Part shown: positions 15,001 to 18,000 of the stretch, piece by piece
Layout: each line of letters begins with the position of its first letter
How positions within the stretch are numbered: position 1 is the stretch's first letter
From: Streptomyces rapamycinicus NRRL 5491
Lineage (GTDB): Bacteria; Actinomycetota; Actinomycetes; Streptomycetales; Streptomycetaceae
Length of the DNA stretch: 64,000 nucleotides
Direction: 5' to 3'
Assembly (NCBI RefSeq): GCF_024298965.1
Contig: NZ_CP085193.1
Location: 7,626,001 to 7,690,000, forward strand
The notes under the pieces: generated by a model
Databases searched by the model: none
The model's input: the letters and a program-made list of their open reading frames with translations, nothing else
Told to the model about the DNA's origin: nothing
Program-made: the position numbers and the translations under genes

Positions 15001-18000
15001 TTCGTGGAGCTGGCGATACGCGCCGGTGACCAGGTCGGTTGCGATCTGCTGGAGGAGCTGACGCTGGAGGCGCCGCTGGTGCTTCCCGAGGCGGGCGGTG
15101 TCCAGCTCCAGCTCTCGGTGGGCGCGCCCGACGGTTCGGGGCGGCGCTCGCTGACGGTGTACTCGCGCTCCGAGGACGCGGCGGTCGACGAGCCGTGGAT
15201 GCGGCATGCGTCGGGCGTGCTGGGCTCGGGCGCGCCGACGGCGCCGTTCGACCTGGCGGCGTGGCCCCCGGCGGGGGCGTCTGCGCTACCGGTCGAGGGT
15301 CTGTACGAGGGTCTGGCCGAGGCCGGGCTGGTGTACGGCCCGGTGTTCCGGGGGCTGACGTCGGCCTGGCGGCTCGATGGTGAGGTCTATGCGGAGCTGG
15401 AGCTGCCGGAGGGCGCGCGGTCTGAGGCGGGTGCGTTTGGTCTGCATCCGGCGCTGTTGGACTCCGCGCTGCATGCGGTGGGGTTGGGCGGTCTGATCGA
15501 GGGCGAGGTCGGTGCTCGGCTGCCGTTTTCGTGGTCCGGGGTGTCGTTGCATGCGGTGGGTGCTTCGGTGTTGCGGGTGCGGTTGTCGGCTGCTGGTGCG
15601 GGTGCGGTGTCGCTCGCGGTGGCCGATGGTGCGGGGCGTGCGGTGCTGTCGGTGGATTCGCTGGTGTTGCGGCCGGTGTCGGTGGAGCAGATCCGGGGTG
15701 CGCGGGGTGGTCGTCAGGAGTCGCTGTACCGGCTTGACTGGGCTGAGGTGTCCGCTCAGGGTGGGGCAGGGCGCTGGGCGTTGCTTGGGTCCGACGCCTT
15801 GGGGTTGGCGTCGTCTGGGCAGCGGTTCGAGACGTACGCCGATCTGGAGGCGTTGGCTGCGGCGGTGGAGTCGGGTGCCAGTGTGCTGCCGGATGATGTG
15901 GTGGTCGCCCTGTCCGCGGGCCTTCCGGGGTTTGGGGACGGGGGTGCTGGGGCGGAAGCTGCCGCTGGTGCGGCTTCGCATGTTGGCTCGGGTGGGGCAA
16001 ATCAAGCCCGTCCGGCGTTTGAGGACACGCCCGAAGGGCGTCCGGGGTCCTGGGGCTTGCTCAGCCACGCGGCGGAGCCGCATGTCGATGCTGTGGGAAG
16101 GGGCGGGGCTGGGGAATGCTCCTCACCCGCCGACACGGCGCACCGCGCTACCGCCCAGGCGCTGGGCCTGCTGCAGCAGTGGCTGGCGGATGACCGCTTC
16201 GCAAACTCGCGTCTGGTCGTCCTGACCTCGGGTGCGGTGGGTGCCGGTGCGGATGAGCCGGTGGCCGATCTGGCCCATGCGGCCGTCTGGGGCCTGGTGC
16301 GCTCGGCCGAGTCGGAGAACCCGGGCCGGTTCGTCCTGGTGGACGTCGATGGCGGCGCCGATTCGCTGGCGGCGGTGCCGGACGCGCTGGCGTCGGGCGA
16401 GCCGCAGGTGGCCGTACGGGAGGGGGTGCTGCGGGCACCGCGTCTGGCGCGGGCCGCCGCCACGGGCTCCGAGGACGACGCGCCGGAGTTCGATGCCGAG
16501 GGCACGGTGCTGGTGACCGGTGCGAGTGGCACGCTGGGTGCGCTGTTCGCTCGCCATCTGGTGGTGGAGCGTGGCGTGCGGCATCTGCTGCTGGTGAGCC
16601 GTCGTGGCGGCGAGGCTCCCGGCGCGGCCGAACTCACCTCTGAACTGGTCGAGTTGGGTGCGAGCGTGCGCTGGGCGGCGTGTGATGTCGCCGATCGTGA
16701 CGCGCTGGCCGAGGTGCTGGCGGGGATTCCGGCGGAGCATCCGCTGATGGGCGTGGTGCACACGGCCGGTGTGCTGGATGACGGTGTGATCGGTTCGCTC
16801 ACCCCCGAGCGCATGGCCGGGGTGCTGCGTCCGAAGGTGGACGCGGCGTGGAATCTGCATGAGCTGACCCGCGACCTGGACCTGTCGGCGTTCGTGCTCT
16901 TCTCCTCCGCCGCCGGTGTCTTCGGCGCCGCCGGCCAGGGCAACTACGCCGCCGCCAACGCCTACGTGGACGCGCTCGCCCAGCACCGTACGGCGCTCGG
17001 CCTGCCCGGCACCTCGCTGGCCTGGGGCCTGTGGGCCGCCGAATCCGGCGGTATGGCCGGTGAGCTGGACCAGGCCGATATGTCCCGGATGAGCCGGGGC
17101 GGTGTCGCCGCGCTCGCCACCGACGAGGGCAAGGAGCTGTTCGACGCGGCCGGACGGGCGGGCGAGGCGCTGCTCGTCCCGGTGCGTCTCGACCTGGCGG
17201 CGGCACGGGCCGAGGCGGCGGCCACCGGTGTGGTGGCGCCGCTGATGTCCGGGCTGGTGCGGGTCCCGGCGCGGCGTACGGCCGAGGGCTCCGCCGGAAC
17301 GGACGCCCTGGCGCAGCGGCTTGCCCGCCTGACCGCGCCCGAGCAGTTGGAGACGCTGCTGGAGCTGGTCCGTACCCAGGTCGCGGCCGTCCTGGGCTAT
17401 GCCACCGCCGACTCCGTGGACCCCGATCGGGCCTTCCGCGACCTGGGCTTCGACTCGCTGACCGCTGTCGAACTGCGCAACCGAATGAACGCGGTCACCG
17501 GGATGCGGCTCCCCGCCACCCTGGTCTTCGACTATCCGACCTCCCTCGTCCTGGCCGAACACCTCCGGGACGAACTGGCGGGCACTCGCGCCCAGTCGGG
17601 CCTGCCGGTGTCGACCGTGGGCGCCCTCGCCGATGAGCCGATCGCCATCGTGGGCATGAGCTGCCGCTTCCCGGGCGGGGTGCGCACCCCCGAGGACCTG
17701 TGGCGGCTGCTGTCCTCCGGCCAGGACGCGATCTCCGGCTTCCCCGTGGACCGTGGCTGGGACCTGGACGCGCTCTACCATCCGGACCCGGAGCACCCCG
17801 GGACCTCGTACACCCGCGAGGGCGGTTTCCTCCACGGCGCCGCCGACTTCGACCCCACCTTCTTCGGAATCTCGCCGCGCGAGGCCGTCGCCACCGATCC
17901 GCAGCAGCGGCTGCTGCTGGAGACGTCGTGGGAGGCGTTCGAGCGGGCTGGCATCGACCCGGCCACGCTGCGCGGCAGCCGTACCGGTGTGTTCGCGGGC

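What the first reader, a model, noticed from the sequence alone, without database searches (positions are those of the whole stretch)
15999..16116. A Streptomyces-type intergenic palindromic repeat is translated as a linker in four PKS modules
The sequence shows the same element in m4, m5, m6 and m12, always in frame and always in the DH-KR linker. It has the GCCCGTCCGGCG-TTGAGGA head, a stem-loop and the GGGAAGGGGCG tail familiar from noncoding Streptomyces repeats. A repeat normally found between genes has apparently been domesticated as a coding spacer of ~40-50 residues. It may tolerate insertion because the loop is surface exposed, or it may also act at RNA or DNA level.
Basis: partly seen in the sequence, partly recalled or inferred. 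Interest (0 to 1): 0.82.

Follow-up and report, generated by a model that had tools for sequence, protein, structure and literature searches.

The report
Intergenic DNA repeat translated inside PKS
A short palindromic DNA repeat that Streptomyces normally keep between genes has also settled, in frame, in one floppy loop of several modules of a giant polyketide-making enzyme, where it appears to have spread partly by copying between modules and still largely keeps its hairpin shape.

Summary
The repeat's head hits the 12.47 Mb host genome 91 times (reversed control 2): 81 intergenic, 2 weak hits in genes, 8 in one PKS locus, in seven modules (m4, m5, m6, m12 and three outside the window). All 8 sit at one site: a strand-helix loop inside the KR structural subdomain, not a DH-KR linker. 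A 19-mer of it is in 81 of 121 sampled Streptomyces genomes; the loop insertion was found in 5 of 246. Across 44 PKS loci (76 heads) heads share one frame per locus, and 43 of 43 measurable head-to-tail distances are 1 mod 3, while intergenic ones spread over the classes. Element-free loops are 22-27 aa (13 of 14), element-bearing ones 50-131 aa. AlphaFold puts residues 65-130 of the m4 KR below pLDDT 50. m4 and m5 share a 1.6 kb, 97-100% identical tract covering the element: gene conversion. The peptide shows no codon-position constraint; the hairpin keeps pairing beyond shuffles, with caveats. Closest known kind: Rickettsia palindromic elements, but here one enzyme family, one loop.

The parts
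15999..16116 (+). Element copy in module m4: head GCCCGTCCGGCGTTTGAGGA, hairpins CGCCCGAAGGGCG and GCGGCGGAGCCGC, tail GGGAAGGGGCGGGG; read as ...[36 protein letters not shown]
   Evidence: close to intergenic copy L009
21444..21561 (+). Element copy in m5, identical to m4 here
26838..26955 (+). Element copy in m6, a few substitutions
59407..59554 (+). Two heads in tandem (59414 and 59483, 69 nt apart) in m12; second unit has stem CCAGGGGC-GGA-GCCCATGG
15727..17052 (+). KR structural plus catalytic subdomains of m4 (stretch folded); insert in the loop between strand 57-61 and helix 134-154 of this stretch
15361..17010 (+). m4 side of a tract 97-100% identical to m5 (about 20806-22455), flanked by 60-91% identity; gene conversion tract covering the element
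12061..34248 (+). PKS ORF of 7395 aa holding m4, m5, m6
43703..61288 (+). PKS ORF (up to 5861 aa) holding the m12 copy

Best explanation
A widespread Streptomyces intergenic hairpin repeat entered the strand-helix loop of the KR structural subdomain of a giant modular PKS in one group of Streptomyces. It was tolerated because the loop is (by prediction) disordered and the repeat is usually free of stops in that frame. It then reached further modules at least in part by KR-sized gene conversion, and grew and shrank inside the loop by tandem duplication under a reading-frame constraint. Shown: the same element in both settings, same site, same frame, frame-preserving lengths, one clear conversion tract in the host and similar ones in relatives, a low-confidence loop in the model, a hairpin that mostly still pairs. 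Inferred: the first insertion, its direction (intergenic to PKS), the number of independent insertions, translation in the mature enzyme, exposure of the loop, and neutrality for enzyme function.
For: Direction: 19-mer in 81 of 121 genomes, loop insertion in 5 of 246 (8 matched the pattern, 3 of them taken as chance). Identity: intergenic L009 shares the CACGCCCGAAGGGCG and GCCACGCGGCGGAGCCGCATATCGATGCTG blocks and the tail with m4-m6; L021 shares the second. Coding copies: 8 of 8 in the host PKS after setting aside two 2-mismatch hits, 11 of 24 in G096 all in its PKS cluster, 0 of 30 sampled in G051; among proteins of about 243-773 aa only two Streptomyces KR fragments matched (E 3e-4 and 0.22). 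Frame: 44 loci, 76 heads, one frame per locus; 43 of 43 measurable head-tail distances are 1 mod 3 (46, 61, 70, 85, 94); head spacings 54-114 all multiples of 3; host intergenic 18/14/20 for 0/1/2 of 52. Spread: m4/m5 tract, similar tracts in G096 and S. violaceusniger. Element-free members inside an element-bearing KR clade: S. asiaticus P0005_4963 and S. sabulosicollis L178. Loop: AF2. Noncoding-like composition: the codon model of 44 PKS copies noncoding islands inside the frame.
Against: The KR tree needs 5 label changes, at least 3 forced by starred branches, so descent with the KR alone fails; conversion of the loop or repeated insertion must be added. Tracts include the conserved KR catalytic domain, so they do not show that the element drives conversion. 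m4/m6 and m5/m6 are only patchily similar, and no tract was seen for own a/b, m12/m13, a/m13 or clearly for S. iranensis L169/L171. The codon model called 24 of 44 PKS copies coding-like, 6 of 8 in the host. Mobility of the repeat was not shown; no target duplication was sought. No proteomic evidence. Proteins between about 773 and 4067 aa were not searched for the peptide.
Confidence: 0.8

Rival explanations
1. Recurrent independent insertion: the intergenic element entered the same KR loop several times in different modules, selection keeping only in-frame events at a tolerant site. (This can hold together with conversion.)
For: Element-bearing modules fall in several KR clades. Copies show distinct subtypes (long m4-m6 type, double-stem m13, short CTT/CAAG, CCA/ATGG and CCT/CAGG types), some matching intergenic variants: CCA/CATGG in L040, CCT/CAGG in G074.
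Against: All PKS copies examined share orientation and frame, although in 48 host intergenic units two + frames (45 and 36 open) and all three - frames (44, 47, 48 open) would be readable. Conversion tracts show another route.
Confidence: 0.3
2. The peptide has been domesticated: the loop does a protein-level job (spacing, docking, dimer contact) and is kept for its residues.
For: ARPA[FIL]ED and GRGG.GE recur in the orthologous PKSs of several species; most orthologous m4-m6-type loops are long.
Against: No sign of constraint on residues: in 28 PKS units diversity is 0.116, 0.095 and 0.121 at codon positions 1, 2, 3, and the synonymous share (0.22) lies between those of the two wrong frames (0.28, 0.15). 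Loop length varies 50-131 aa. AF2 shows no order.
Confidence: 0.12
3. Ordinary PKS low-complexity linker with chance or compositional resemblance to the intergenic repeat.
For: An unrelated repeat ([10 protein letters not shown]) has expanded in the same loop of another module, so the loop does accept other sequence.
Against: Exact 20-base heads and block-wise similarity over about 100 bases to intergenic copies; 91 hits vs 2 control; 0 control hits in 121 genomes.
Confidence: 0.01

Closest known systems
Rickettsia palindromic elements (RPE), Ogata et al. 2000 and 2002 (seen only through passages of the review PMC10969869; the 2002 paper is not held)
   Same: Small palindromic repeats, some of them in frame inside ORFs and apparently tolerated by the protein.
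   Different: The review describes insertion into unrelated genes; here the coding copies found are all in one loop of the KR domain of PKS modules, with 1-3 heads per locus (four ARP..ED motifs by eye in homolog P0006), and spread partly by gene conversion. Host phylum and target enzyme differ; sequence homology was not tested.
REP/BIME-type extragenic palindromes (abstracts in listings only: PMC3733652, PMC1525189)
   Same: High-copy palindromic units, intergenic, often head to head, rare in divergent gaps.
   Different: Larger composite unit with head, hairpin(s) and G-rich tail; coding copies.
[quoted passage not shown]
   Same: A G/T-skewed stretch adjoins the loop in m4-m6, and near-identical tracts there fit gene conversion.
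   Different: The element is not skewed (0.05/0.00 in the m4 block starting at the head), has intergenic relatives, and occurs in m_a, m_b, m12, m13 without strong skew.

Membership tests
Rickettsia palindromic elements (as a kind: translated palindromic repeats) | Palindromic repeat found both between genes and in frame in ORFs | tested here: met
   81 intergenic and 8 coding host copies; frame test
Rickettsia palindromic elements (as a kind: translated palindromic repeats) | Insertion into many unrelated genes | tested here: not met
   Coding copies only in PKS KR loops in what was examined: all host hits, all 24 in G096, 30 of 233 in G051, 80 named loci, two protein length classes
Rickettsia palindromic elements (as a kind: translated palindromic repeats) | Sequence homology to an RPE family | not tested
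   No RPE sequence was fetched
REP/BIME | High-copy extragenic palindrome, rare in promoter-side gaps | tested here: met
   Host gaps with element: 21 convergent, 24 tandem, 2 divergent; without: 7, 20, 10
REP/BIME | GTAG or CGTC tag and a REP-associated transposase | not tested
   No such transposase was searched for
MITE | Terminal inverted repeats and target-site duplication matching a transposase | not tested
   Neither was looked for
Rfam RNA families | Match to a curated family | tested here: not met
   Intergenic locus L009: no match at E up to 1; none at the m4-m6 elements in window 15500-27500 at gathering score
GRINS | Intense GC and TA skew across the repeat | tested here: not met
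   Block from the m4 head 0.05/0.00; the four blocks before it 0.29-0.43/0.42-0.76

The most novel reading that the evidence does not exclude
The element is still maintained as a nucleic-acid hairpin while being translated: among PKS copies the outer stem changes on both sides and mostly keeps pairing (codon pairs CTT/CAA, CCA/ATG, CAA/ATT, CCT/CAG in 16 of 28 units), although the amino acids change freely. It would be a dual-layer element: a disordered peptide spacer plus a DNA or RNA hairpin acting in transcription, mRNA stability or inter-module recombination of the PKS genes. (Lowered from 0.30: a late check, showed the two CCT/CAGG hits of G074 to be intergenic, so that stem type need not have arisen inside a PKS.)
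Probability: 0.27. Interest if true: 0.82.

Novelty: new variant of a known kind. Interest (0 to 1): 0.7.

Why it matters
It would show that protein-coding use of intergenic palindromes is not confined to Rickettsia and would place it in assembly-line PKSs, whose engineering depends on knowing which linkers tolerate change. The loop is a natural, repeatedly used insertion site in the KR structural subdomain, and its copies mark gene conversion between modules. Six core strings of this repeat, present in 81 of 121 sampled Streptomyces genomes, occur in none of the held papers.

Tried and rejected
Chance or compositional resemblance: rejected by controls. Whole-module duplication of m4/m5: rejected, only about 1.6 kb is near-identical. 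Strand bias by chromosome position: no clear bias in four position bins of the 81 host intergenic copies; the origin was not located. Terminator-like scan of 15500-27500: three sites, none at an element. Rfam: none at the element. PKS product: not named. Azalomycin has 19 extension modules (passage of PMC5082578), while the part of this locus that I fetched, cut at its upstream end, has 26 KR motifs, one probably spurious. Papers: the six core strings are in no held paper; 'Rickettsia palindromic element' together with Streptomyces in none; the listings (capped at 8-20 of 24-110 papers) showed no title or abstract start about a Streptomyces repeat inside PKS genes; none of those papers was read in full. 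In one search G034, G112 and G220 also match the loop pattern, but the matched text shown does not continue as the element; I took them as chance and did not examine them further. The third protein search of the cap was not used.

Full report
What is there. The window is G000:C1:7626001-7690000 of a single-contig 12.47 Mb genome and lies inside a giant type I PKS locus. I read 7570001-7710000 (plus the window): nine long PKS ORFs and 26 KR motifs, one probably spurious. Exact heads lie at window 16006, 21451, 26845, 59414 and 59483 and, outside it, at 7584876, 7605085 and 7691249: 8 heads in 7 modules, all read as ARPA[FIL]ED.

Is it an intergenic repeat? The 20-base head at up to 2 mismatches hits the host 91 times against 2 for the reversed control. 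I judged every hit with a codon-usage segmentation trained on four PKS ORFs of the locus (one of which holds a copy): 81 intergenic, 8 in the PKS, 2 (L066, L071; 2 mismatches each) inside other genes, which I take as chance. By the segmentation alone the m4 and m5 copies also look noncoding: a 207-base island inside one continuous reading frame (L012, L013); the other six PKS heads were called coding. Over all 44 PKS loci, 20 are such islands and 24 are not. Intergenic L009 resembles m4-m6 over its whole length. Intergenic copies are rare in divergent gaps. Counts are convergent/tandem/divergent, gaps with the element first, then neighbouring gaps without it: host 21/24/2 and 7/20/10; G051 8/11/1 and 0/6/4; G096 4/6/0 and 1/1/2; named genomes 9/12/1 and 4/6/3.

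Distribution. A 19-mer with one free base occurs in 81 of 121 Streptomyces genomes (host included), up to 233 copies, with 0 control hits. A pattern joining the element's tail to the KR helix matched 8 of 246 genomes. In five (G000, G055, G096, G150, G180; 10.9-12.5 Mb) it is the PKS loop; other genomes of that size lack it; the matched text in G034, G112 and G220 does not look like the element. In G096 11 of 24 copies are in the PKS cluster, all on one strand (4 called coding, 7 islands in one frame), and 13 are intergenic; in G051 30 of 30 sampled copies (of 233) are intergenic. I recall these species as the S. violaceusniger clade; no call tested this. Of two protein searches, the PKS-length one gave ten PKSs at E up to 1, the one for about 243-773 aa two KR fragments (E 3e-4 and 0.22); lengths between were not searched, and only this reading frame was asked.

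Site. Aligned linkers put the insert between ...LPDxVVVxL and AHxAT...LLQxWL of the KR structural subdomain (PF22953). My pattern read 39 loops from host and homologs (KR-only modules are mostly missed): 25 with the element are 50-131 aa; of 14 without, 13 are 22-27 aa and one (host ORF5) is 79 aa with an unrelated SLTGVA repeat. Against SpnB KR (3SLK) the m4 residues 64-138 face chain residues 83-92, but the upstream half of that alignment is weak (2.7 bits). AF2 on 33 rows gave mean pLDDT 80.5, pTM 0.81; residues 65-130 are below 50 between strand 57-61 and helix 134-154, block means 94-95 before and 85-94 after. Foldseek returns modular PKS reducing regions and KRs (8g7w, 9pc6, 3slk, 2fr0) as best hits. 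Exposure was not computed.

Frame. In 44 PKS loci with 76 heads (42 distinct around the last head: L077 and L170 are one module, m4 and m5 are identical there) all heads of a locus share a frame. Head spacings (54, 63, 69, 75, 84, 90, 96, 111, 114) are multiples of 3, and head-to-tail distance is 1 mod 3 in 43 of 43 measurable; one locus had no tail. Two loci (L166, L168) have stops, all at least 375 bases after the first head. Intergenic units measured: host 18/14/20 for 0/1/2 mod 3 of 52, named 4/11/17 of 32, G051 3/3/0 of 6. PKS events are related, not independent, but five length classes and nine spacings all fit. In 48 host intergenic units the used frame is open in 45, the other readable + frame in 36, the third in none, the three - frames in 44-48; 13 of 48 would fit the PKS frame at both ends as they are. 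One shared frame thus points to few founding insertions.

Spread. m4 and m5 share about 1.6 kb (15361-17010) at 97-100% identity with 60-91% on both sides; m5/m6 and m4/m6 are patchy. Similar tracts cover the element in G096 (L134/L138, L136/L137) and S. violaceusniger (L166/L167, L176/L158), weaker ones in L153/L154 and L084/L088; own a/b, m12/m13, a/m13 and L169/L171 show no sharp tract. Tracts include the KR catalytic domain, so I do not claim that the element starts them. In a tree of 66 KRs (41 with the element, 25 without) the label needs 5 changes, 3 forced by starred branches. S. asiaticus P0005_4963 and S. sabulosicollis L178 are element-free inside an element-bearing clade, at an unresolved fork; loss or an original empty site is open.

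Peptide or hairpin? In 28 distinct PKS units of the commonest length, codon positions 1, 2, 3 have diversity 0.116, 0.095, 0.121, and the synonymous share of differing codons is 0.22 against 0.28 and 0.15 in the wrong frames: no sign of selection on the peptide beyond staying open. The hairpin (structure chosen after looking at these rows) pairs in 92.0% of cells (shuffled 83.3 +/- 1.3, 0 of 500 as high) with 22 double-change cells (shuffled 7.2 +/- 2.7, 0 of 500) and at most 3 when slid by 1-3 columns; but the number of pairs with a double change (2 vs 1.7, 371 of 500) and of further pair types (10 vs 8.8, 81 of 500) does not exceed shuffles. Two pairs carry the signal; one of them fails in 7 of 28 units, and a third pair fails in 10. 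Perfectly complementary outer codon pairs are 16 of 28. The CTT/CAAG stem is in none of 128 intergenic loci (overlapping ones included), and its pattern hit only PKS copies in the group; but CCA/CATGG occurs in intergenic L040 and CCT/CAGG in two intergenic copies of G074, so some stem types may have arrived ready-made. Other alternatives to selection: palindrome correction by template switching (recalled), and relatedness of rows, which the shuffles ignore. A simple arm score is similar in PKS (6.6 of 8, n=41) and intergenic (6.05, n=60) copies.

Known kinds. The nearest phenomenon is the Rickettsia palindromic element: repeats of about 150 bp, nearly half of those in R. conorii in frame in ORFs (review passages, PMC10969869); the review's authors call a similar mechanism in other prokaryotes conceivable. 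This element works like one in lying in frame and being tolerated, but I do not file it as an RPE: insertion in many unrelated genes was not met in what I examined, and homology was not tested. It also resembles REP-type palindromes. GRINS (passages, PMC9899208) may explain conversion around m4-m6 but not the element.

Verdict. A real, well-supported and unusual case: a repeat common between genes across Streptomyces, in frame at one loop of a PKS, with a reading-frame constraint and spread at least partly by conversion. Whether the hairpin is kept for a nucleic-acid function while being translated is the strongest open question.

Noticed in passing
window 15400-15980, 20800-21400, 26350-26650: Strong G over C and T over A skew (up to 0.43 and 0.76) just upstream of the element in m4-m6, GRINS-like; not seen at the other element-bearing modules.
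   Followed up: partly
window about 10096-10330 (module with KR stretch 9913-11220): The same KR loop carries an unrelated peptide repeat, [19 protein letters not shown]..., 79 aa by my loop limits.
   Followed up: no
window 18592-18666 and 24025-24099, minus strand: Two Rfam RF01782 (ASpks antisense sRNA) matches above gathering score within PKS coding sequence, perhaps only shared PKS homology.
   Followed up: no
G000 4243664-4243836 and 7487116-7487285 (L037, L050): Intergenic tandem arrays of four heads with a 50-51 base period.
   Followed up: no
   Followed up: partly
L166, L168: Stops at least 375 bases downstream of the first head in S. violaceusniger and S. himastatinicus PKS sequence; sequencing error or real breaks not decided.
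   Followed up: no
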